Assembly (NCBI RefSeq): GCF_007970665.1
Contig: NZ_CP042430.1
Coordinates: 1,488,001 to 1,552,000, forward strand
Length of the DNA: 64,000 bases
Reading direction: 5' to 3'
Origin: Baekduia soli
GTDB lineage: Bacteria > Actinomycetota > Thermoleophilia > Solirubrobacterales > Solirubrobacteraceae
The notes beneath the pieces are model-generated. The model had not been told where the DNA came from, did not search any database, and saw nothing but the letters and a program-made list of their open reading frames with translations. Below, piece after piece: positions 51,869 through 64,000 of the stretch. Position 1 is the stretch's first letter. Every line of letters starts with the position of its first letter. Both the position numbers and the translations under genes were made by a program.

Positions 51869-51887
51869 GGGCTGAGCCGGGACGGTG

Positions 51888-51906
51888 ATGGTTGCAGTGT
51901 CAACTA
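51888..51906. promoter_or_regulatory. MarR operator, site A (marR promoter)
   Basis: ATGGTTG-N6-CAACTA. It overlaps TATAGT (51908-51903, minus strand), the likely -10 of marR. The same gap serves the GGDEF-EAL gene on the plus strand. Confidence 0.75.
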
Positions 51907-52004
51907 TATCGTCCCGAGCGGCCGATCCGGGGCCGGCGGCGCGCGGACGCGCATGGCGCGCGGGCGCTCCGGGGATCGGCGGACGCGGCCGATCTACCGG
52001 AACG

Positions 52005-53752
52005 ATGGCCGAGACGATCGAGCGATCCGAGCACGTGCTGCGGGCGCGGCGCACCGCGGCGCGGGCCCGCGGCGCCGTGGGCATCGCGGGCATCGCGCTC
52101 ATCGCCGGGTGGCACAGCCTGTCGTCGGGCCCGGTGCTGGCCGCGGCGGGCTTCGCGATCATCCTGGCGACCGCGCTGGTCCAGCTCCTGGCCCCGCGGC
52201 TGCGCTGGCTGACCATCGAGGAGTCCCTGGCGGGCCTCGCGGGCGTCTTCATCATCGGCCTGGGGGACCAGCGGGTCACCGTCCTCAGCGTGCTGTGGCT
52301 CTCGGCGGTCGCCAGCGGCGTGCTCGCACGCGGCGGCCGCGTGCACTGGATCGGCCGTGCCGTGCTGCTCGGCGCGCTGGCGCTGCCGGTGGTCCGCCTC
52401 GGGCGCATCGAGCACCAGCACGCCGGGCTCGTCGTCGGCGTGATCTGGCTCCTGCTGACGTGCGGGCGCCTGACGACCGAGCTCAACCGACTCCTGGCCC
52501 TCGCCCGCCACGACGCCGACCACGACGGCCTGACGGGCGCGCTCTCCCGCGCGGCGTTCCGCCGGGAGCTGGCCTCGCGCGTGCAGGACGGCCCCGTCGG
52601 CCTCCTGCTCGTCGACCTCGACAACTTCGGCCACATCAACAAGGTCAGCGGGCACGCCGCCGGCGACCGCGTCCTGGTCGCGGCCGTCGCGCGCCTCATC
52701 GAGGTCGCCGGCGCCGGCCGGCCCGTCGGTCGCCTGGGCGGCGACGAGTTCGCGATGATCACCGGCGCCGACGGCACCCAGGAGCTCGCCGCCCGCGCGC
52801 TGCAGGCGCTGTCCCTGCCCGACGAGCACGGCAACGCGCTGCGGGCGTCGGTCGGCATCGCGGCGGCGCCGCGCGACGGCGACGACGCCGACGCGCTCCT
52901 GCGCGCGGGCGACATCGCGCTGCGGGTCGCCAAGCGCAGCGGCAAGCATCAGGTCGCCGTCTACGCGGGCCAGTCGCTGACCGACGCCGGCCCGGGCGGC
53001 GCCCAGGGCGCGCTGCGCCGCCTCATCGCCGGCGAGGGCATCACGATGGTCGTCCAGCCGATCGTCGAGCCCGCCGACGGCACCATCCACGCGTTCGAGG
53101 CGCTGGCGCGCTTCCGCACCCGGGCACCGACAGCCCGCTGCACTGGTTCGCGCTGGCCGACGAGTTCGGCCTGCGCGGGCAGCTCGAGCTGGCCTGCCTG
53201 CGGGCCGCCCTGGAGCTCGTTCCCCGGCTCCCGGAGGGCAGCCTGCTCAGCGTCAACGTCTCGGGCCCGGTCCTGCTCGACGAGCGCACGCTCGCGCTCC
53301 TGCTCGAGCAGCCCGCCCTCGACCGGGTGATCGTCGAGATCACCGAGGACGCGCTCGTCCAGGACGACGCCGGGTTCCACGCCGCGCTGGCGCCGCTGGT
53401 GGCCCGCGGCGTGCGCCTGGCCGTCGACGACATGGGGGCGGGCTACTCGGGCCTGCGCCAGATCACCGCGCTGCGCCCCGCCTACCTCAAGCTGGACCGC
53501 TCGCTGGTCCGGGGCGTCGACGCCTCACCGGACCGTGCGGCGCTCATCGAGGCGCTGCTGCACTACGCCGGGCGCACCGGCGGCCTGCTCGTCGCCGAGG
53601 GCGTCGAGACGCGGTCCGAGCTGGACGCGGTGCGCCGGCTCGGCGTCCCGCTGGTCCAGGGCTTCCACTACGGGCGCCCCGGAGCGCCGTGGCCGGTCGT
53701 GCTGCCGCCCGGCCTGGCGCTCGCGGAGCCGCTCGTGCCGCGGGCTCAGTAG
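52005..53752 (+). pseudogene. GGDEF-EAL membrane protein, broken by a one-base frameshift
   Basis: A cyclic-di-GMP signalling protein of ~582 residues if repaired. The N-terminus has about five hydrophobic segments (~20-145). The GGDEF domain (DHDGLTGALSRAAFRRELAS, GRLGGDEFAMI) is intact, and EAL begins FEALARFR at 53094-53117. There the frame shifts: the reading moves from the first frame to another at the CGGG run 53121-53124, and continues TDSPLHWFALADEFGLRG with SVNVSG, VEITED, VDDMGAGYSGL, YLKLDRS, AEGVETRSE, all EAL catalytic residues. One missing G would explain it: sequencing error or recent mutation. ATG 52005 chosen. Confidence 0.82.
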
Positions 53753-54903
53753 GAGCGCGGCATCCCGAGGATGTGCTGGCCGATGTAGGTCAGCACGAGA
53801 TTGTTGGAGACCGGGGCGATGGAGTACAGCCGGGTCTCGCGGAACTTGCGCTCGATGTCGTACTCGTGGGCGAAGGAGAACCCGCCGAACGTGTCCATCG
53901 CCGCGTTGGCGGCGGCCCAGGAGGCCTCGGAGGCCAGCAGCTTGGCCATGTTGGCCTCGTCGCCGCAGGGCTTGCCCTGCTCGAACAGCCACGCCGCCTT
54001 GTAGCGCATGAGGTCGGCCGCCTGGAGCGAGGCGTGCGCCTTGGCCAGCGGGAACTGGATCCCCTGGTTGGACCCGATCGGGCGCCCGAAGATCACGCGC
54101 TCGGTGCCGTAGGCCGTGGCCTTGTCCAGGAAGAAGCGCCCGTCGCCGATGCATTCGCTGGCGATGAGGATGCGCTCCGCGTTCATGCCGTCGAGGATCT
54201 GGCGGAAGCCGTTGTCCAGCGTGCCGACCAGCGCGCTGTCGGGGATGAACAGGTTGTCGAAGAAGATCTCGGTGGTCGAGTGGTTGACCATCGTCTTGAT
54301 CGGCTTGATCGTCAGCGCGTCGCCGGCCTCGCGCATGTCGACCAGGAACGTCGACAGGCCCTGCGTCTTCTTCTCGACCTCGTCGGCCGGCGTGGTGCGG
54401 GCCAGCAGCAGCATGAGGTCGGAGTGCTCGGCGCGCGAGGTCCAGATCTTCTGGCCCGACACGCTCCAGCCGCCGTCGACCTTCTTGGCACGCGTCTGGA
54501 TCTTCGTGGTGTCCGAGCCCGCGTTGGGCTCGGTGACCGCGAAGGCCTGCAGGCGCAGGTCGCCGCTGGCGATCTTGGGCAGGTACTCGCGCTTCTGCTC
54601 CTCGCTGCCGTGGCGCAGGACGGTGCCCATCACGTACATCTGCGCGTGGCAGGCGCCCGCGTTGCCGCCCGAGGCGCAGATCTCCTCGAGGATGGCGCCG
54701 GCGTAGGTGATGGACAGCCCGGAGCCGCCGTACTCCTCGGGGATGAGGGCCGCCAGCCAGCCGTTCTCGGTGAGCGCGTCGACGAACTCGGTCGGGTAGC
54801 GGTCGGGCTCGTTCTCCTGCCAGTACTCACCGGGGAACTTGGAGCACAGGTCGCGTACGGCGGCGCGGACGCTCTGCAGGTCGTCCTCGAGGGAGAAGTC
54901 CAT
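53746..54903 (-). CDS. acyl-CoA dehydrogenase with unusual active-site segment
   Basis: A 385-residue acyl-CoA dehydrogenase. AFAVTEPNAGSDTTKIQT and SGQKIWTSRAEHSDLMLL are the flavin motifs; RVIFGRPIGSNQGIQFPLA is the helix with the arginine. At the place where most relatives have the catalytic Glu (IYEGT), it has LYSIAPVSNNLV, so the base is absent or elsewhere. ATG 54903 follows GGAGG six bases upstream. It diverges from hyuA with 253 bp between, and its 3' end overlaps the GGDEF-EAL gene by 7 bp. Probably part of the same acid catabolism. Confidence 0.9.
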   Translation of the reverse strand: MDFSLEDDLQSVRAAVRDLCSKFPGEYWQENEPDRYPTEFVDALTENGWLAALIPEEYGGSGLSITYAGAILEEICASGGNAGACHAQMYVMGTVLRHGSEEQKREYLPKIASGDLRLQAFAVTEPNAGSDTTKIQTRAKKVDGGWSVSGQKIWTSRAEHSDLMLLLARTTPADEVEKKTQGLSTFLVDMREAGDALTIKPIKTMVNHSTTEIFFDNLFIPDSALVGTLDNGFRQILDGMNAERILIASECIGDGRFFLDKATAYGTERVIFGRPIGSNQGIQFPLAKAHASLQAADLMRYKAAWLFEQGKPCGDEANMAKLLASEASWAAANAAMDTFGGFSFAHEYDIERKFRETRLYSIAPVSNNLVLTYIGQHILGMPRSY

Positions 54904-55075
54904 GATCAACCTCCGGTGGGTGGCTCGGCGCGGTGCATCGCGCGGGGTGGTGCTCGTCGGCGCGGGATGCGCCGGACCCGAGGCGGGCCAGTCTACATGG
55001 GTCTGTCTCTTTCGCTCGGGTCGCGCACGTGGTACGACAGACCGTGCCGCGATGCGGCGGGACTGGCGGAATCGT

Positions 55076-55156: not shown

Positions 55157-57280
55157 ATGAGCAAGAACGGGTCCGGCGGCATCTTCGTGGCGTCCGACAT
55201 CGGGGGGACGTTCACGGACACCGTGGTGATGGACGCCGACGGCGAGGTCACGCGCTACAAGGCGCCGACCACCCCCGACGAGCTCGTCCGCGGCGTGCTG
55301 GACACCTTCGCGCTGGCGGCCGCGGAGCGCGGCGTCGAGCCCACGGCGTTCATCGAGGACATCCGCCTGTTCTCCCACGGCACCACCGTCGCCACCAACG
55401 CGCTGCTGCAGCGCCGCGGCGCGCGGACCGGCGTGCTGCTGACCGAGGGCTTCGGCGACACGCTGTCCATCATGCGCGGCTACAAGGGCTTCGGGCTCGA
55501 GCAGGAGGCGCTCAAGAGCTATCAGAACCTCACGAAGCGCCACACGATCGTCGACCAGCGCCTCGTCCGCGAGATCCCCGAGCGCGTGGACTACCTGGGC
55601 CGCACCATCCGGCCGCTGGACGAGGACGCTGCCCGCGCGACCATCCGCGACCTCATCGCCGAGGGCGTCGAGGCCATCGCCATCTGCCTGCTGTGGTGCA
55701 CGATGGACCCGACGCACGAGCAGCGGGTCGCCGAGATCGTGCGCGAGGAGGCGCCCGACCTCTACGTGAGCCTCTCCTCCGAGGTCCTGCCGCGCACGAA
55801 CGAGTACGCCCGCAGCGTCACGACCGCGGTCAACGCGTTCCTCGGGCCGGAGGTGGCCGGCACGACCGCGTCGCTGCAGGCCCGCCTCGCCGACGCCGGG
55901 CTGGAGCACCACCCGCTGCTCATGCAGTCCAACGGCGGCCTGGCCTCCGTGCGCCACGCGGCCGACAAGCCCGTCGAGTTCCTGCTCTCGGGCCCGGTCG
56001 GCGGCGTGGTGGGCTCGCGCCTGACGGCCGAGAGCCTCGGCGAGCCCAACGTCGTCACCACCGACATGGGTGGCACGAGCTTCGACGTCGGCCTCATCGT
56101 CGACGGCCGGCCGCTGCTGCAGGCCACCACGAACATGGACTACCAGCCGATCGGCGTGCCGTCGGTCGCCGTCCAGACCGTGGGCGCCGGCGGCGGCAGC
56201 ATCGCCCGCATCGAGGACGGGATCCTGCACGTCGGCCCCGAGAGCGCGGGCGCCGTGCCCGGGCCCGCCTGCTACGGCGCGGGCGGCACCGAGCCGACCG
56301 TCACCGACGCCGACGTCGTGCTCGGGCTCATCAACCCCGAGACGTTCCTCGGCGGGCGGCGCAAGCTCGACCCCGAGGCGGCGCGCCAGGCCATCGCCAC
56401 CCGGATCGCCGAGCCGCTGGGCATCACGGTGGAGGAGGCGGCCTACGGCATCAAGCAGATCGTCGACTCCCGGATGGTCGACCTGGTGCGCCAGGTCACG
56501 ATCCACAAGGGCTTCGACCCGCGCGAGTTCAGCCTCGTGGCCTTCGGCGGCGCCGGGCCCGTCCACGCGCACGCCTTCGGCTCGGGCCTGTCGATCCGCA
56601 AGATCATCGTGCCGGTGACGGCCTCGGTGCACTCGGCCTTCGGCATCGCGGCCTCCGACGTCGTGGTCACGCGCGAGCGCTCCCTGGCGATGAAGACCCC
56701 GCCGGGCAGCAGCGAGGCCTCCCAGTACCTCGACCTCGACGTCATCAACGACGTCCTGGGCGGCGTCGAGAAGGACGCGGTCGCGTTCCTGCAGGAGCAG
56801 GGCTTCGACGACACGACGATCGACGTCACGCGCTTCGTGGACATGCGCTTCCGCTTCCAGATCCACGAGCTCACGATCGAGATCCCCGAGGTCCCGCTGG
56901 ACGCCGCCAAGCTCGACGCGCTGGTCACCCGCTTCATCGACACCTACGAGCAGCGCTTCGGCGAGGGCTCGGCGTTCACCGCGGCCGGCGTCGAGCTCGT
57001 CAACTGGCGCGTGGTGGCCAGCGGGCGCCTCGAGCGGCCCGAGCTCAAGGAGCAGCCCGCGGTCGACGGCGGCGGCACGCCCGAGCCGATCCGCATGGAC
57101 CGCGTCTACCACGGCGCGTGGTACGACGCGGCGGTCTACGACGAGCACGCGCTGCGCTCCGGCGTGACGTTCGCCGGGCCCGCCATCGTCGAGCTGCCCG
57201 ACACGAACATCGTCATCGGACCCGACCAGTCCGCCTCGGTGGACGGTCTCGGCAACGTCCTCATCGTCCCCGGCACCTGA
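55157..57280 (+). CDS. hyuA: hydantoinase/oxoprolinase A-type ATPase subunit
   Basis: A 707-residue actin-fold ATPase of the HyuA/acetone carboxylase beta group. VASDIGGTFTDTVVMDADGE is the phosphate-1 loop, FSHGTTVATNALLQRRGA follows, VVTTDMGGTSFDVGLIV is the second phosphate loop, and SVAVQTVGAGGGSIARI the adenosine side. Such subunits activate a ketone, hydantoin or oxoproline with ATP. Strong promoter and ribosome binding site. HyuB follows after 14 bp. Which member of the family is meant cannot be told from sequence: N-methylhydantoinase, 5-oxoprolinase and acetone-type carboxylases are all possible. Confidence 0.93.
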   Translation: MSKNGSGGIFVASDIGGTFTDTVVMDADGEVTRYKAPTTPDELVRGVLDTFALAAAERGVEPTAFIEDIRLFSHGTTVATNALLQRRGARTGVLLTEGFGDTLSIMRGYKGFGLEQEALKSYQNLTKRHTIVDQRLVREIPERVDYLGRTIRPLDEDAARATIRDLIAEGVEAIAICLLWCTMDPTHEQRVAEIVREEAPDLYVSLSSEVLPRTNEYARSVTTAVNAFLGPEVAGTTASLQARLADAGLEHHPLLMQSNGGLASVRHAADKPVEFLLSGPVGGVVGSRLTAESLGEPNVVTTDMGGTSFDVGLIVDGRPLLQATTNMDYQPIGVPSVAVQTVGAGGGSIARIEDGILHVGPESAGAVPGPACYGAGGTEPTVTDADVVLGLINPETFLGGRRKLDPEAARQAIATRIAEPLGITVEEAAYGIKQIVDSRMVDLVRQVTIHKGFDPREFSLVAFGGAGPVHAHAFGSGLSIRKIIVPVTASVHSAFGIAASDVVVTRERSLAMKTPPGSSEASQYLDLDVINDVLGGVEKDAVAFLQEQGFDDTTIDVTRFVDMRFRFQIHELTIEIPEVPLDAAKLDALVTRFIDTYEQRFGEGSAFTAAGVELVNWRVVASGRLERPELKEQPAVDGGGTPEPIRMDRVYHGAWYDAAVYDEHALRSGVTFAGPAIVELPDTNIVIGPDQSASVDGLGNVLIVPGT

Positions 57281-57294
57281 GAGAGAGGCGCACC

Positions 57295-59466
57295 ATGGCC
57301 ATCACCCCCGACGTCGCCTTCGACCCCATCACCTACGAGGTGATCTCCCACCGCCTGTGGTCGATCAACGAGGAGGGCTCGACGACGATCGCCCACGCGT
57401 CCGGCTCCCCGGTCGTCCAGGCGACGGACTACAACTTCGCGCTCTACGCCCCCAACGGCGACCTCGCCGTCAGCGGCGTGTTCTACATGCTGCCCGTCTT
57501 CGTCATGCAGATGATGATCAAGAAGACGATCGAGCTCTACGGCGACGAGCTGCGGCCGGGCGACGTCTTCATCACCAACGACCCGTTCACGGCGGGTGTC
57601 CACCAGTCCGACGTGCAGTTCGTCTCGCCCTTCTTCGAGGGCGACCGCCTGGTGGGCTGGACGGGCTGCATGGCCCATGTCATGGACGTCGGCGGCATGA
57701 ACCCCGGCTCCTGGTGTCCCACGGCGACCGAGCTGTCCCAGGAGGGCCTGCTCGTCCCGCTGCAGCGCATCGTCGACCGGGGCAAGATCGTCCAGGGCCT
57801 CTGGGATCTCATCATGAGCAACTCGCGGCTGCCCGCGATGCTGGCCAACGACTTCTCGGCCATGCTGTCCTCGCACCGCGTCGCCCAGACCCGCCTGGCC
57901 GAGGCCTGCGACCAGTACGGCGCCGACGCGATCGTCGACGTCATGCAGCACGCGATCGAGCGCACGGAGGCCCAGATGCGCGAGTGGGTGCGCGAGCTGC
58001 CCGACGGCGAGTTCGAGCACGTCGGCTTCGTCGACCACGACGGCCAGGCCAACAACCTGTACAAGGTCGCCTGCCGCCTGACGAAGAAGGACGACACCCT
58101 CACCTTCGACTTCACCGGCACCGACGACGCCATCATCGGCTTCGGCAACGCGTCGGCGCCCGGCACCTACGGCGCCATCGGCACGGCGATCATCGCGATC
58201 TTCGGCTCCAAGCTGAACTGGAACGCGGGGCTCATGCGGCCGGTGGTGGTCAACACCCCGCAGAACTCGGTCATCAGCGCCGAGCCGCCGCGCCCGATCT
58301 CGGGCGGTTCGGTGACCGCCGCGTGGATCGCGGCCGCCGGCGCGATGGCGTGCACCTCGAAGATGCTGGCCTTCCGCGAGGAGTACCACGAGTTCGTCAT
58401 GGGGCCGCCCGACGGGTCGTGGCTGCTGACGCAGTTCGGCGGCGTCAACCAGTTCGGCGAGCCGTTCGCGGTCATGTTCATGGACCCGCTGGCCTGGGGC
58501 GGCCCGGCCATGAGCACGCGCGACGGCGTCAGCACCGGCGGCTGCCTGGCCGCGCTCGGCGGCGGCTTCAACGACGTCGAGCTGCACGAGAGCCAGCACC
58601 CGCTGCTGTACCTCTGGCGGCGCGAGAACCCCGACTCCGGCGGCGCGGGACGCTACCGGGGCGGCAACGGCATCGAGCTGGCGCTCGCCGTGTACGACTC
58701 GCCCGGGATCATGTCCATCTGCGGCACCCAGGGCGCGGTCGTCCCCTCGTGCATCGGCGTGTTCGGCGCCCTGCCCGGCTCGACGTGCCTGTACGACGTG
58801 GTCGCCGACAGCGACTGGCGCGAGCGCTACGCCGCCGGGGAGTCGATCCACACGCTCGACGACATGTCGGGCACGCGGTCGGTTCCGGACGCCAAGACCA
58901 CGGTCATGATGGGCCCGACCGACGTCGTCAACAACCTGACCCAGAATGCCGGCGGACACGGTGACCCGCTGGACCGCCCGCCCGCCGAGGTCCTGGACGA
59001 CGTGCTCGGCGGCCACGTGACGCTCGAGGGCGCGCGCGAGCGCTACGGCGTCGTCGTCGACGGCCACGCGGTCGACGAGGCGGCGACCACGGCCAAGCGC
59101 GACGAGCTGCGCAGGGCGCGCCTGGCCGAGGCCACCGGCGGCGCCGGTGACTACGAGGTCGGCAGCGACCTGCCGGTGGTCGAGCGCTGGGGCGGCGTCC
59201 TGAACCTGCTGCGCTCCGGCGACGGCATCGTCGTCCAGGCCGCCGACAGCGGCGCGGTCCTGGGCCCGTTGAGCGACGAGGGCTGGCGCCACCTCGTGCC
59301 GTCCCGCACGCTGAGCGCCTGGGACGTCGGTCCCCAGGCGCGGATCGACGACCGGCTCGAGGTGCGCCAGTACCTCGACCCGATCACGGGCCGCTCCCTG
59401 TGGGTGGACCTGCTGCGCATCGGCGACCCGGTCCCGGTGGACTTCCGCCTGGCGTCGCTGGCCTGA
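57295..59466 (+). CDS. hyuB: hydantoinase/oxoprolinase B-type subunit with C-terminal acetone-carboxylase-gamma-like domain
   Basis: A 723-residue catalytic partner of HyuA. Residues 1-~615 are a normal HyuB: FDPITYEVISHRLWSINEEG, FITNDPFTAGVHQSDVQFVS, GWTGCMAHVMDVGGMNPGSW and GGVNQFGEPFAVMFMDP. The last ~105 residues are extra: AVLGPLSDEGWRHLVPSRTL, then RLEVRQYLDPITGRSLWVDL and GDPVPVDFRL resemble acetone carboxylase gamma subunits, but the zinc cysteines are missing. So this may be a fused carboxylase-type complex. It is followed by an 11-bp G/C hairpin. Confidence 0.88.
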   Translation: MAITPDVAFDPITYEVISHRLWSINEEGSTTIAHASGSPVVQATDYNFALYAPNGDLAVSGVFYMLPVFVMQMMIKKTIELYGDELRPGDVFITNDPFTAGVHQSDVQFVSPFFEGDRLVGWTGCMAHVMDVGGMNPGSWCPTATELSQEGLLVPLQRIVDRGKIVQGLWDLIMSNSRLPAMLANDFSAMLSSHRVAQTRLAEACDQYGADAIVDVMQHAIERTEAQMREWVRELPDGEFEHVGFVDHDGQANNLYKVACRLTKKDDTLTFDFTGTDDAIIGFGNASAPGTYGAIGTAIIAIFGSKLNWNAGLMRPVVVNTPQNSVISAEPPRPISGGSVTAAWIAAAGAMACTSKMLAFREEYHEFVMGPPDGSWLLTQFGGVNQFGEPFAVMFMDPLAWGGPAMSTRDGVSTGGCLAALGGGFNDVELHESQHPLLYLWRRENPDSGGAGRYRGGNGIELALAVYDSPGIMSICGTQGAVVPSCIGVFGALPGSTCLYDVVADSDWRERYAAGESIHTLDDMSGTRSVPDAKTTVMMGPTDVVNNLTQNAGGHGDPLDRPPAEVLDDVLGGHVTLEGARERYGVVVDGHAVDEAATTAKRDELRRARLAEATGGAGDYEVGSDLPVVERWGGVLNLLRSGDGIVVQAADSGAVLGPLSDEGWRHLVPSRTLSAWDVGPQARIDDRLEVRQYLDPITGRSLWVDLLRIGDPVPVDFRLASLA

Positions 59467-59531: not shown

Positions 59532-60302
59532 ATGACCGACGACGACGACGTCACCCCGAGAGCCACGATGCCGCGCGTGCAGGTGCGGCGCATCCGCAAG
59601 GCCTCCGAGCAGGTCGCCGACCAGCTGCGGGCGCTCATCATCGGCGGCGATCTGCCGGCCGGCGCCAAGCTGCCGACCGAGCAGGGCCTGGCGACCGAGT
59701 TCGGCGTGAGCCGGGCCACGGTGCGCGAGGCGCTCACCGGCCTGTCGACGGAGGGCCTGCTGCGCACGGTCAAGGGCGTCAACGGCGGCAGCTTCGTCAC
59801 GACCCCGTCGCCCGACCGGGTCCGCGACGCGCTGAACCTCGCGGTGACGCTGCTGTCGCAGACCAACGGCGTGACGCTGGACGAGCTGCTGGAGGTGCGC
59901 GAGTACCTCGAGATCCCGGCCGCGCGCCTGGCCGCCCTGCGGCGCACCGGCGACACCCTGCGCGAGATGGCCGAGGCGATCCCCGAGAGCCCGCTCGAGC
60001 TCTCGCTCGGCACCCAGTTCGTGCACAACCGCGACTTCCACAAGGCGGTCCTGCACGCCTCGGAGAACACGCTGCTGTCCATCGCGGCCGAGCCGATCTT
60101 CTCCGTGTTGCAGACGCGGCTGTCGCGGTCGGAGATCGGGCCGGCGTTCCACCGGACGATCAACGTCCACCACCGCGCGATCCACGCGGCCATCGCCTCC
60201 GGGGACGCGGGCGAGTCCGAGCGCCAGATGCGCGAGCACCTCGCCTGGCTGAGCCCGAAGTACCGCCGGATCTGGCACGAGTTCCAAGAGTCGGGCATAT
60301 GA
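59532..60302 (+). CDS. GntR/FadR-family regulator
   Basis: A 256-residue FadR-class regulator. SEQVADQLRALIIGGDLPAG, KLPTEQGLATEFGVSRATVR form the winged helix; VREYLEIPAARLAAL, NRDFHKAVLHAS and VHHRAIHAAIASGD are the FCD metal-site helices. ATG 59532 starts it; GGGAG lies 11 bases upstream. It sits between hyuB and a CoA transferase whose promoters share a GTCAGACT site, so it is the likely local regulator. The effector is probably the pathway acid or its CoA ester (inference). Confidence 0.88.
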   Translation: MTDDDDVTPRATMPRVQVRRIRKASEQVADQLRALIIGGDLPAGAKLPTEQGLATEFGVSRATVREALTGLSTEGLLRTVKGVNGGSFVTTPSPDRVRDALNLAVTLLSQTNGVTLDELLEVREYLEIPAARLAALRRTGDTLREMAEAIPESPLELSLGTQFVHNRDFHKAVLHASENTLLSIAAEPIFSVLQTRLSRSEIGPAFHRTINVHHRAIHAAIASGDAGESERQMREHLAWLSPKYRRIWHEFQESGI

Positions 60303-60363: not shown

Positions 60364-60375
60364 TTATGTCAGACT
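60364..60375. promoter_or_regulatory. putative GntR operator over the CoA-transferase start
   Basis: TTATGTCAGACT shares 11 of 12 bases with the hyuA site (TTAGGTCAGACT at 55075-55086). It covers the start codon. The following GTCAG-N9-CTGAC (60368-60386) adds symmetry. Confidence 0.5.
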
Positions 60376-61634
60376 CTTTGCCTGACCGCGCCCGCGCTCC
60401 ATTGGCCGACCTGCGGATCCTGGCGATCGAGCAGTTCGGGGCGGGGCCGTTCGGGACGCTCCAGCTCGCCGATCTCGGCGCGGAGGTCATCAAGGTCGAG
60501 GACCCGCGCGAGGGCGGCGACGTCTCCCGCTACGTCCCGCCGTTCCAGGAGGGCGAGGACTCGATCTTCTTCGAGTCCTTCAACCGCAACAAGAAGAGCA
60601 TCTCGCTCGACCTGCGCCACCCCGACGGGCGCGCGATCTTCGAGGACCTCGTCCGCGAGGTCGACGTCGTGTTCTCCAACCTGCGCGGCGACGGCCCGGA
60701 GAAGCTCGGCCTGACCTACGCGACGCTCGGCGAGGTCAACCCGCGCGTCGTGTGCTGCTCGCTCAGCGGCTTCGGCATGACCGGGCCGCGGCGCAGCGAG
60801 GGCGCCTACGACTACGTCATCCAGGGGCTGGCCGGCTGGATGAGCCTCACCGGCGGACCCGACGAGCCGCCCATGAAGAGCGGGCTCTCGCTCGTCGACC
60901 TCGCCGGCGGCTACGTCGCCGCGATCTCCATGCTCGGGGCGGTGTGGCGCGCCCGGCGCGACGGCATCGGCGGCGACTGCGACCTGTCGCTGTTCGAGAC
61001 GGCGCTTTCGCTGACGACCTACGTCGGCACGTGGTCGGCCAGCCGCGGCTACCAGCTCGAGCGCCTGGCCAACTCGGCCCACCCGTCGATCGTGCCGTTC
61101 CAGGTCTTCTCCACCCGCGACGGCTGGCTCGTCATCGCCTGTGCCAAGGAGAAGTTCTGGCAGCGGCTGGTGGCGATCCTCAAGCGCCCCGACCTCGGGG
61201 AGCGCTACCCGCTGTTCGCCGACCGCCGCGACCACCGCGCCGAGGTCCAGGCCGAGCTGCAGGCCGAGTTCGCCAAGGACGACACGGCGGCGTGGGTCGC
61301 GGCCCTGCGCGAGGCGGGCATCCCGGCATCGGCGGTCAACGACGTCGCCGCCGCGCTCGCCGACCCGCAGGTGCAGGCGCGCGAGGTCATCGAGGAGCTC
61401 GAGCACGACACGCTGGGCTCCGTGCGCCACATCGGCAGCCCGCTGCGCATCGAGGGTGGCCGCGTGCCCGCGGGCCGTGCGCCGTTCCGCGGCGAGCACA
61501 CCGAGCAGCTGCTGGCCGACCTGTGCGGCTACGACGAGGAGGTCGTCGAGCGCCTGCTGGCCGGCGGGGCGGTCGCCGGCCCGGCGGCGCGGCCGGCGGC
61601 GGCCGTCGGCCAGACGCCTCCCGCCGCGGAGTGA
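60366..61634 (+). CDS. family III CoA transferase (CaiB/BaiF type)
   Basis: A 422-residue CoA transferase that moves CoA between organic acids through an aspartyl anhydride. PLADLRILAIEQFGAGPFGT, LADLGAEVIKVEDPREGGD and FNRNKKSISLDLRHPDG are family N-terminal motifs; KSGLSLVDLAGGY holds the catalytic Asp. The first codons (Ser TCA, Asp GAC, Ser TCT, Leu TTG) are rare for this genome, probably because the DNA is also an operator. The last ~30 residues are an Ala/Pro tail. It would activate the pathway acid for the SDR and MaoC enzymes that follow. Confidence 0.92.
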   Translation: MSDSLPDRARAPLADLRILAIEQFGAGPFGTLQLADLGAEVIKVEDPREGGDVSRYVPPFQEGEDSIFFESFNRNKKSISLDLRHPDGRAIFEDLVREVDVVFSNLRGDGPEKLGLTYATLGEVNPRVVCCSLSGFGMTGPRRSEGAYDYVIQGLAGWMSLTGGPDEPPMKSGLSLVDLAGGYVAAISMLGAVWRARRDGIGGDCDLSLFETALSLTTYVGTWSASRGYQLERLANSAHPSIVPFQVFSTRDGWLVIACAKEKFWQRLVAILKRPDLGERYPLFADRRDHRAEVQAELQAEFAKDDTAAWVAALREAGIPASAVNDVAAALADPQVQAREVIEELEHDTLGSVRHIGSPLRIEGGRVPAGRAPFRGEHTEQLLADLCGYDEEVVERLLAGGAVAGPAARPAAAVGQTPPAAE

Positions 61635-62457: not shown

Positions 62458-63000
62458 ATGACCGCCGAACCGCAGGAAGCCCCCAAGATCTGGCGCGGGA
62501 GGTTCTTCGAGGACTTCGAGGTCGGAGACGTCTTCCGCAGCCGCCTGGGGCGCACCGTCACCGAGGTCGACAACATCTGGTTCACGTGCCTGACGATGAA
62601 CACCAACCAGATGCACTTCAACACCGACTACTCCAAGGGCACGCGCTTCGGCAAGCCCCTGGTGAACTCGTGCCTGACGCTGGCCATCATCGCCGGCCTC
62701 TCGGTCCCGGACACGAGCGAGAACGGCACCGCCAACCTGGGCTGGACGGACATCAAGCTCCCCAACCCCGTCTTCGCCGGCGACACGCTGTACGCCGAGA
62801 GCGAGATCCTGGGCCTGCGCGAGTCCTCCTCGCGGCCCAACGTGGGCATCGTCTCCCTGCGCACGCGCGGGATCAACCAGGACGGCGTGGTCATCATGGA
62901 GTACCTGCGCACGTTCATGTGCTACCGCCGCGACGCGCCGGAGGTCCAGGACCAGTTCCCCAAGGTCGAGTCCGACTGGACCGTGGGAGAGCCGGGATGA
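62458..63000 (+). CDS. MaoC-type dehydratase
   Basis: A 180-residue single hot-dog hydratase. FEDFEVGDVFRSRLGRTVTE, DNIWFTCLTMNTNQMHFNTD and FGKPLVNSCLTLAIIAGLSV match the mesaconyl/methylmalyl-CoA dehydratase-like branch; the usual D-x4-H is altered to N-TNQMHF with the His kept. ATG 62458 follows AGGAGCAGG. It overlaps the MmgE/PrpD start (ATGA). A substrate with a branched dicarboxyl-CoA is possible. Confidence 0.88.
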   Translation: MTAEPQEAPKIWRGRFFEDFEVGDVFRSRLGRTVTEVDNIWFTCLTMNTNQMHFNTDYSKGTRFGKPLVNSCLTLAIIAGLSVPDTSENGTANLGWTDIKLPNPVFAGDTLYAESEILGLRESSSRPNVGIVSLRTRGINQDGVVIMEYLRTFMCYRRDAPEVQDQFPKVESDWTVGEPG

Positions 63001-64000
63001 CCGCCGCCGAGGCCCTCGCCGGCTTCGGGGAGGCGCTGACCTACGACGCCGTTCCGCCGGAGGTCGCGCACCGCGCGAAGCTGGGGCTGCTGGACGTCGT
63101 CGGCTGCGCGCTGGCCGCCAGCGCGGCCGGCGCCGGCACCCAGGCCCAGGCGCTCGTCCTCGACGAGCAGGGCGCCGGGCCGGCGGAGCTGTGGGACACC
63201 GGCACCGGCACGACCCCGTCGGGGGCGGCGCTGGCCAACGGCATGCTCGGCCACGCGCTGGACTTCGACGACACGCACCCGGCCGCGATGATCCACGTCT
63301 CGACGGTCGTGGCCCCCGCCGCGGTCGCCGTCGGCCAGGCCCGCGGCGCCACCGGGCGCGACCTCGTCGTCGCGCTCGTCGCCGGGACCGAGGCCACGAC
63401 GCGCCTCGGGCTCGCGACGCCGGGCGCGTTCCACGAGCGCGGGCTGCACCCGACGTCGGTGTGCGGCGTCTTCGGCGGGGCGCTGGCCGTGGCCGGCCTG
63501 CTCGGGCTGGACCGCGCGCAGACCACCGCGGCGCTGGGCATCGCGGGCAGCACGGCCTCCGGGCTGTTCGAGTTCCTGGCCGACGGGTCGGCGACCAAGC
63601 CGTTCCACGCGGGCTGGGCCGCCCACGCCTCGGTCGTCGCGGCCGGGATGGCGCGGCTGGGCGCGACCGGCCCCGCCTCGGTGCTGGAGGGGCGCTTCGG
63701 CCTGTTCCGCGCCGTGCTGGGCCAGGAGGCCGACGAGGCGCTGCGCGAGCAGGTCGCCGACCTCGGCGAGCGCTGGGAGACCCTGGCGATGGCCATCAAG
63801 CCCTACCCGGCGTGCCACCTGACCCACGCCGCGATGGACGGTGCCCAGCAGCTGCACCGCCGCGGGCTGCGCGCGGAGGACGTGGCGTCCGTGCAACTCC
63901 GGGTGCCCGAGGCGGCGGTGGGCATCGTGCTCGAGCCCGCCGCGCGCAAGGCGCGGCCCGACACGCCCTACGAGGCGAAGTTCAGCCTGCCCTTCTCCGT
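62997..64000 (+). CDS. MmgE/PrpD-family protein (cut by window edge)
   Basis: At least 334 residues; the right edge cuts it. KLGLLDVVGCALAASAAGAG, GHALDFDDTHPAAMIHVSTV (DFDDTH motif) and FEFLADGSATKPFHAGWAAH (catalytic-site region), then KPYPACHLTHAAMDG identify the 2-methylcitrate dehydratase/aconitate-decarboxylase-like fold. Members dehydrate, isomerise or decarboxylate tricarboxylates. ATG 62997 overlaps the MaoC stop. Last visible gene of the operon beginning at 60366. Confidence 0.92.
   Translation, partial: MTAAEALAGFGEALTYDAVPPEVAHRAKLGLLDVVGCALAASAAGAGTQAQALVLDEQGAGPAELWDTGTGTTPSGAALANGMLGHALDFDDTHPAAMIHVSTVVAPAAVAVGQARGATGRDLVVALVAGTEATTRLGLATPGAFHERGLHPTSVCGVFGGALAVAGLLGLDRAQTTAALGIAGSTASGLFEFLADGSATKPFHAGWAAHASVVAAGMARLGATGPASVLEGRFGLFRAVLGQEADEALREQVADLGERWETLAMAIKPYPACHLTHAAMDGAQQLHRRGLRAEDVASVQLRVPEAAVGIVLEPAARKARPDTPYEAKFSLPFS

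What the first reader, a model, noticed from the sequence alone, without database searches (positions are those of the whole stretch)
59150..59466. HyuB fused to a degenerate acetone-carboxylase-gamma domain
The last ~105 residues have the AVLGP...W and RLEVRQY...GDPVPVDF layout of acetone carboxylase gamma subunits, but its zinc cysteines are lost. This would place the enzyme nearer to ketone carboxylases than to hydantoinases and explain why a CoA transferase follows.
Basis: partly seen in the sequence, partly recalled or inferred. Interest (0 to 1): 0.6.

Follow-up and report, generated by a model that had tools for sequence, protein, structure and literature searches.

The report
HyuB with zinc-less carboxylase gamma tail
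A gene that would be annotated as a hydantoinase subunit carries at its end a full domain of the acetone/acetophenone carboxylase helper subunit whose four zinc-binding cysteines are gone, which suggests a two-gene ketone-carboxylase-like enzyme hidden under a misleading name.

Summary
Residues ~621-723 of HyuB (window 59155-59463) form a domain homologous to the gamma subunit of acetone and acetophenone carboxylases. The direct Pfam scan finds nothing. Profile-profile comparison and the predicted fold do: its best hits in the PDB are the gamma chains of 5m45, 5svb, 5svc and 5l9w (VIA Z 8.6-9.6, next 3.4). All four Zn-cysteine positions are replaced (A649, S652, D695, T698), while orthologues in a Mesorhizobium and a Bacillota MAG keep CxxC...CPxC. 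The loss defines one well-supported clade. Trees of the HyuB core without the tail, and of HyuA, put these enzymes with ketone carboxylases rather than with hydantoinases, with long reference branches as a caveat. Carboxylase activity remains inferred. The CoA-transferase argument is weak: CoA-activating enzymes lie about as often beside gamma-less HyuB in this genome (7/15 vs 5/18), though one orthologue is followed by an acetoacetate-CoA ligase. Chelation work found Zn unimportant for acetone carboxylase activity (PMC10865871), so a Zn-free gamma is plausible. Verdict: new variant of a known kind.

The parts
55157..57280 (+). hyuA, 707 aa, ATP-binding subunit; DIGGTFTD and DMGGTSFD phosphate motifs and GAVPGPACYG present
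   Evidence: (PF05378, PF01968, PF19278); motif names from PMC8453981 passages; HyuA tree
57295..59121 (+). hyuB core, residues 1-609 (PF02538 at 10-558); metal ligands D45, H103, D106, H128; Pro67 where acetone carboxylase has His111
59122..59466 (+). gamma-like C-terminal domain (residues 610-723 plus stop; ordered in the model from about residue 621), fused in frame
59239..59250 (+). former first zinc knuckle: CxxC of the orthologues is A649-A-D-S652
59377..59388 (+). former second zinc knuckle: CPxC of the orthologues is D695-P-I-T698, followed by Gly
59532..60302 (+). GntR/FCD regulator
60366..61634 (+). CoA-transferase family III, PF02515 383 bits
61648..62403 (+). short-chain dehydrogenase; relatives 44-48% identical lie beside or near the HyuB-gamma genes of L088, L123 and L124
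62458..63000 (+). MaoC-type hydratase, best NCBIfam match RipB/Ich, 187 bits (cut-off 340)
62997..64000 (+). MmgE/PrpD family protein (start assumed), runs on past the window end
53746..54909 (-). acyl-CoA dehydrogenase, divergent from hyuA (possible partner only)

Best explanation
HyuA-HyuB is a two-gene enzyme of the hydantoinase/ketone carboxylase superfamily in which the gamma subunit of ketone carboxylases is fused to the C-terminus of the beta-type subunit and has lost its structural zinc. Shown: the gamma homology, the fusion, the replacement of all four cysteines, and intact ATP motifs and metal ligands. Supported by trees: one loss of the cysteines in this clade from a Cys4 ancestor (by parsimony), and a position on the ketone-carboxylase side (subject to long-branch doubt). 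Inferred: HyuA phosphorylates a carbonyl substrate (and perhaps bicarbonate); the intermediate travels to the metal site of HyuB; a C-C bond is made to CO2, giving a beta-keto acid; the CoA transferase, SDR and MaoC enzyme then take it into a beta-oxidation-like route. Also inferred: the gamma domain serves as a packing piece held by the C-terminal arm of HyuB, which needs no zinc because covalent fusion and a repacked Ser/Asp/Thr-Gly turn replace the knuckle.
For: Fold and profile. Orthologues with Cys4 against Cys0 at the same columns. HyuB-core trees: 18 hydrolase-type rows one clade 100/98, window clade on the Apc/Acx side of a 95/91 branch; 96/98 in a 50-row tree; with one reference left out, the window clade shares an 18-row side without any hydrolase with ApcD (100/98) or with AcxA (95/63). 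HyuA tree concordant, 97/88; AU p 0.0067 against the window clade with hydrolases. Ligands D45, H103, D106, H128 match Apc D65, H123, D126, H148. The gene right after the Cys-free HyuB of a Conexibacter MAG is acetoacetate-CoA ligase (TIGR01217 758 bits, cut-off 521). A CoA-transferase III gene directly follows the Mesorhizobium orthologue, and a truncated one follows the second copy in this genome. PMC5214803 (section 7 read): gamma occurs in Acx and Apc and in no Hyd. PMC10865871 (Results part 1 read): A. aromaticum acetone carboxylase activity restored without added Zn.
Against: Two genes only, and a HyuB core of about 610 aa, nearer to CapB (581) than to ApcD (684) or AcxA (776); HyuA, 707 aa, lies between CapA (696) and AcxB (717). 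No second HyuA-type gene in the 20 kb around. Best NCBIfam scores are to caprolactamase. Acx His111, a proposed carboxyphosphate residue, is Pro67 in the window clade, while the hydrolase CapB has His there. ApcD and AcxA sit on long branches; holding them with the hydrolases is not rejected (p 0.263 HyuB; p 0.051 HyuA); and with ApcD left out one branch (89/74) sets AcxA with the hydrolases apart from the window clade, as if basal to it. CoA enzymes are not specific to gamma loci. In the 50-row tree a three-row gamma-bearing group (L053, L054, L056) and L051 fall on the hydrolase side, so a gamma tail alone does not prove a carboxylase.
Confidence: 0.55

Rival explanations
1. An ATP-dependent amide, lactam or imide hydrolase of the caprolactamase/oxoindoleacetate type that happens to carry a gamma-like tail. 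The CoA transferase activates the dicarboxylic or amino acid product.
For: Higher family scores to CapA and CapB; two-gene layout (criteria) and a HyuB core near CapB length; shared metal site in hydrolases; His111 missing; CoA-activating genes near gamma-less HyuB loci too; PF04199 putative-cyclase genes near the L084 and L087 orthologues; MaoC and CoA-transferase with best NCBIfam matches among itaconate/mesaconate and glutarate enzymes, below cut-off.
Against: Core and HyuA trees; gamma reported absent from Hyd complexes; acetoacetate-CoA ligase beside one orthologue.
Confidence: 0.33
2. The tail is a decaying vestige: after loss of zinc it has no role and drifts.
For: Tail less conserved than core: window to L084 49% against 65%, to L087 30% against 55%; function of gamma unclear in the literature.
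Against: Frame intact in the four full-length members of the clade; tails 48-58% identical between Cys-free members at 58-65% core identity, no worse than Cys4 pairs (35% tail at 51% core; 37% at 48%; 39% at 57%; 52% at 78%); S652, D695 and T698 are the same in all four; a confident gamma fold is predicted.
Confidence: 0.07
3. The Cys-free turn forms a different ligand or nucleotide site, giving gamma a new regulatory role.
For: Same Pro-x-Thr/Ser-Gly form in 12 of 12 degenerate gammas aligned; the nine of these that are in the HyuB tree need at least 5 changes of state.
Against: No ligand evidence; the same turn could be purely structural.
Confidence: 0.05

Closest known systems
Acetone carboxylase (AcxABC; X. 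autotrophicus 5M45/5SVB/5SVC)
   Same: Gamma fold of the tail (Z 9.3-9.6); HyuA- and HyuB-type subunits; metal ligands H, D, H; tree side
   Different: Gamma fused to HyuB and Cys-free; Asp45 where Acx has Glu89; Pro67 for His111; shorter HyuB core
Acetophenone carboxylase (ApcABCDE; A. aromaticum 5L9W)
   Same: Gamma fold (Z 8.6); all four metal ligands identical (D, H, D, H); gamma is held by the C-terminal arm of the beta subunit there, which fits a fusion at that end
   Different: No second HyuA-type (alpha-prime) gene in the 20 kb around; epsilon not looked for; two genes; no Zn cysteines
Caprolactamase CapAB and N-methylhydantoinase (6YRA, 7HK5)
   Same: Two-gene layout (CapAB), HyuB core length, best single-family scores
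   Different: No gamma domain; other side of the split in the HyuB tree; in the HyuA tree CapA branches between the two sides
HyuB-gamma fusions of the same genome (L030-L038)
   Same: Same fusion point after the YGVV...R linker
   Different: 10 of the 15 gamma-associated loci of this genome keep four Cys, 3 are partial; only the window gene and its second copy have none

Membership tests
Ketone carboxylase gamma (PF08882) | Direct match to the Pfam model | tested here: not met
   No hit up to E 10 for P0003, P0004, P0010, P0011; Cys4 orthologue P0013 16.6 bits, cut-off 21, and P0012 no PF08882 hit
Ketone carboxylase gamma (PF08882) | Homology by profile-profile comparison to members | tested here: met
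   hhalign prob 97.0, E 1.1e-10 against 11 domains of the genome, 30 shuffles max score 16.2 against 61.4
Ketone carboxylase gamma (PF08882) | Gamma fold | tested here: met
   Predicted model against PDB:
Ketone carboxylase gamma (PF08882) | Four conserved Zn cysteines | tested here: not met
   A649, S652, D695, T698; feature described in PMC5543143 and PMC5214803
Ketone carboxylase gamma (PF08882) | Separate small subunit | tested here: not met
   Fused in frame to HyuB
Acetone/acetophenone carboxylase | alpha- and beta-type subunits on the carboxylase side of the family tree | tested here: met
   caveat: long reference branches, and a tree with Apc and Acx on the hydrolase side is not rejected (p 0.263, p 0.051)
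Acetone/acetophenone carboxylase | Gene set acxABC or apcABCD(E) | tested here: not met
   Two genes, hyuA-hyuB; none of the 12 PF08882 matches of the genome lies in the window; one HyuA only in the 20 kb around; ApcE not looked for
Acetone/acetophenone carboxylase | ATP- and bicarbonate-dependent C-C bond formation | not testable with these tools
   needs an assay
Hydantoinase/oxoprolinase (Hyd) | Two genes hydAB | tested here: met
Hydantoinase/oxoprolinase (Hyd) | No gamma | tested here: not met
   gamma-like domain present
Hydantoinase/oxoprolinase (Hyd) | Groups with hydrolase references | tested here: not met
   AU p 0.046 and 0.0067

The most novel reading that the evidence does not exclude
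Enzymes annotated as hydantoinase B include a large branch of two-gene, beta-gamma-fused ketone (or other carbonyl) carboxylases, and their gamma domain exists in two recurrent states: a zinc knuckle and a zinc-free turn of the form (C/D)Px(T/S)G that arose several times independently. The window enzyme is a natural zinc-free gamma, which would show that gamma works by packing and not by metal.
Probability: 0.35. Interest if true: 0.65.

Novelty: new variant of a known kind. Interest (0 to 1): 0.5.

Why it matters
[quoted passage not shown] A natural enzyme with gamma covalently attached and its zinc site erased gives a direct test of what gamma does. It also warns that HyuAB pairs with a 100-residue C-terminal extension should not be called hydantoinases without a look at the tail: the annotated Rhodococcus opacus example is called hydantoinase B/oxoprolinase family protein. 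This genome alone holds 33 HyuB loci (38 matches, merged by me), 15 of them gamma-associated.

Tried and rejected
Single-sequence searches of the tail (Pfam, NCBIfam, PDB sequences) gave nothing. The first genome-contig scan, with the two-row tail alignment, found no relatives; the second, with a two-row full-length HyuB alignment, found five. Tail searches of 61 relatives and of 396 genomes of the phylum found the Cys-free form only in this genome, plus weak matches of other gammas and one unrelated-looking frame (L045). AlphaFold2 of the full-length HyuB from five rows was poor (pLDDT 54.1) and was not used. The idea that CoA-enzyme adjacency marks gamma loci was tested and not supported. 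Metal ligands do not separate carboxylases from hydrolases. His111 was tried as a marker: it is present in Acx, Apc and CapB, absent in N-methylhydantoinase, and present in 6 of 21 gamma-associated rows and 7 of 16 gamma-less rows, so it is not diagnostic. Decay was considered and thought unlikely. Literature searches for the fusion (listings only, apart from the papers named below) showed no paper on HyuB-gamma fusions or on Cys-free gamma; the library lacks most subscription journals, and domain-architecture databases could not be consulted. Papers: PMC5543143 passages; PMC5214803 passages and section 7; PMC8453981 passages; PMC10865871 passages and Results part 1 of 2; PMC11737030 whole text (acetophenone carboxylase operon in a Paraconexibacter); PMC2244623 passages. 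The role of a CoA transferase in the oxoindoleacetate pathway is recalled.

Rows dropped: of 53 HyuA and 44 HyuB frames found, one search kept 37 and 37 (fragments, split genes and odd lengths dropped; counts rechecked); over-long merged HyuA frames were cut to 720 aa; one HyuB (L064_2373451) was cut to its last 640 residues; one search skipped two HyuA without a HyuB partner, and two of its rows are one gene met twice. One search left out the partial core L064_2380920, and its ten added rows are about 500-residue partial cores. Cys-state labels were set by eye. The script kept only frames with a CPx(C/S/T/G) motif, so other degenerate forms would be missed there (26 of 28 rows printed). One search read the 29 loci returned outside this genome, not all of its matches. 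In one search one AMP-binding match below cut-off was left out (67 of 68 used).

Full report
What is there. HyuA (55157-57280) and HyuB (57295-59466, 723 aa) are adjacent on the + strand. Pfam gives the three Hydantoinase_A-type domains for HyuA and Hydantoinase_B for residues 10-558 of HyuB; the last 114 residues match no Pfam or NCBIfam family even at E 10 and no PDB sequence (best E 0.73).

It is a gamma domain. The genome (5.21 Mb, one contig) holds 12 PF08882 matches over the cut-off, none of them the window's; 11 of 12 lie in frames of 680 aa or more, downstream of a HyuB core, and one is in a 146-aa frame. Searching the genome with the window tail finds a second copy, 55% identical, at 1602390-1602698. 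hhalign of four Cys-free tails against eleven gamma domains of this genome (three of them partly degenerate) gives probability 97.0, E 1.1e-10, score 61.4, against a best of 16.2 in 30 column-shuffled controls; adding two Cys4 orthologues raises the probability to 98.3. An AlphaFold2 model from five rows (pLDDT 80.6, pTM 0.72) has as its first five Foldseek hits in 350,542 PDB chains the gamma chains of acetone carboxylase (5m45_C, 5svb_C, 5svc_C, 5svb_F) and acetophenone carboxylase (5l9w_C), probability 1.00, E 1.4e-3 to 7.9e-3; the sixth has probability 0.23. VIA-align Z is 9.6, 9.4, 9.3 and 8.6 over 94-97 residues, then 3.4.

The zinc site is gone. A scan of genome contigs with full-length HyuB found five relatives: Conexibacter MAG RYN_242 (62%), Candidatus Solirubrobacter pratensis (60%), a fragment in Conexibacter MAG RYN_258 (63%), a Mesorhizobium MAG (51%) and a Bacillota MAG (46%). 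The last two keep CGAC...CPHC and CLHC...CPHC; the window has A649-A-D-S652 and D695-P-I-T698 at those columns. Window, second copy, Conexibacter and Solirubrobacter read A or S, S, D, T. In a 50-row HyuB-core tree the Cys-free rows of this family form one clade (six rows, two of them zero-distance repeats of others; 100/98) inside a 13-row family (100/100) whose other seven members, five of them from the window's own taxonomic family, keep the four Zn cysteines. So by parsimony the cysteines were lost on the branch to this clade. In the order, 52 of 232 genomes have a gamma match; of the 29 tails that I read outside this genome, three lack the knuckle cysteines (two are identical to the tails of L085 and L084, one is a fragment) and the other 26 keep cysteine pairs, one of them read only from inside the first pair.

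Losses recur. Among 20 gamma-HyuB rows 9 have lost two or more of the four cysteines, with at least 5 changes of state on both the HyuB and the HyuA tree. In this genome the 15 gamma-associated loci split into 10 with four cysteines, 3 partial and 2 without. In 12 of 12 degenerate gammas aligned (these 9, plus L098, L107 and L109, picked because they looked degenerate) the last cysteine is Thr or Ser followed by Gly. One R. koreensis row (L051) reached S, S, D, T in a separate part of the tree.

Where the enzyme belongs. On the HyuB core with the tail cut off, 16 gamma-less HyuBs of this genome, CapB and N-methylhydantoinase form one clade (100/98), while the gamma-bearing ones, the one with a separate gamma gene, ApcD and AcxA lie on the other side of a 95/91 branch, apart from L051. 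The HyuA tree repeats this (97/88), with CapA and L080 branching between the two sides. AU tests: window clade with hydrolases p 0.046 (HyuB) and 0.0067 (HyuA); ApcD/AcxA (or ApcC/AcxB) with hydrolases p 0.263 (HyuB) and 0.051 (HyuA), so not rejected. Leaving out AcxA or ApcD does not move the window clade to the hydrolases; with AcxA as the only reference the support is lower (95/63) and an 89/74 branch sets AcxA outside the group that holds the window clade. In the 50-row tree three gamma rows of this genome move to the hydrolase side. By single-family scores caprolactamase is nearest; long branches of Apc and Acx may explain that, but it is evidence against. By published criteria (PMC5214803) the case is mixed: two genes and a HyuB core nearer to CapB in length, yet gamma present.

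Active site. D45, H103, D106 and H128 align with the metal ligands of ApcD, CapB and, with Glu for Asp, AcxA (AcxA ligands from PMC5543143). His111 of AcxA, proposed there to help with carboxyphosphate, is Pro67 in all six members of the window family aligned.

Neighbours. After hyuB come a GntR/FCD regulator, a family III CoA transferase, an SDR, a MaoC hydratase nearest RipB/Ich, and MmgE/PrpD; an acyl-CoA dehydrogenase is divergent. In the Conexibacter MAG the next gene is an acetoacetate-CoA ligase over its equivalog cut-off; in the Mesorhizobium MAG it is a CoA transferase; beside the second copy in this genome a 59-residue CoA-transferase remnant with a stop is left. Near L085 no such gene was recognised, and L088 is followed by transporter-like genes. 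SDRs 44-48% identical to the window's lie beside the orthologues in L123 and L124 and about 6 kb from that in L088. These fit ketone to beta-keto acid to CoA ester. But genome-wide, CoA-transferase III or AMP-ligase genes lie within 8 kb on the same strand of 7 of 15 gamma loci, 5 of 18 gamma-less loci and 11% of random places. The association is with HyuAB in general, so it does not single out carboxylases.

Why zinc can go. [quoted passage not shown] Chelation lowered Zn from 1.2 to 0.1 (X. autotrophicus) or 0.3 (A. aromaticum) per hexamer, and the A. aromaticum enzyme regained 97% of its activity with Fe alone; [quoted passage not shown] In Apc, gamma is embraced by the C-terminal arm of the beta subunit, so fusion at that end is sterically reasonable. 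That fusion made zinc dispensable is inference; 10 of the 15 gamma-associated loci of this genome still have the cysteines.

Verdict. Observation confirmed; interpretation partly supported. The gamma homology and the Cys loss are about as sure as sequence and predicted structure can make them (I put them above 0.95); carboxylase chemistry is a little better than even.

Noticed in passing
own genome G000 (33 loci; window locus at C1:1545322-1546968): Large expansion of HyuB: 38 PF02538 matches merge into 33 loci, 15 of them with a gamma domain (14 fused, 1 separate).
   Followed up: partly
G000:C1:1014052-1015714, 2380972-2382638, 4511277-4512745, 540273-541855: Four HyuB genes are split across frames (one match with an inner TGA), so probably broken genes or sequencing errors.
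   Followed up: no
G000:C1:1602148-1602327 (L052): A 59-residue family III CoA-transferase remnant with a stop, directly downstream of the second Cys-free HyuB-gamma gene.
   Followed up: partly
L043, L098, L107: Gammas of the acetone-carboxylase type (long N-terminal part) also show the degenerate knuckle CPxSG; L043 and L098 are in long frames, L043 with HyuB sequence upstream.
   Followed up: partly
window 51885-53752: GGDEF domain in one frame and EAL domain in another frame just downstream: a GGDEF-EAL gene with an apparent frameshift.
   Followed up: partly
L084:1984-3521 and L087:2017-2883: PF04199 cyclase-family genes together with a CoA transferase near the orthologous HyuAB-gamma in two phyla; their link to the pathway is unexplained.
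   Followed up: no
L051 tail (R. koreensis plasmid): Second, separate Cys-free gamma with S..S and D..T replacements like those of the window clade.
   Followed up: partly
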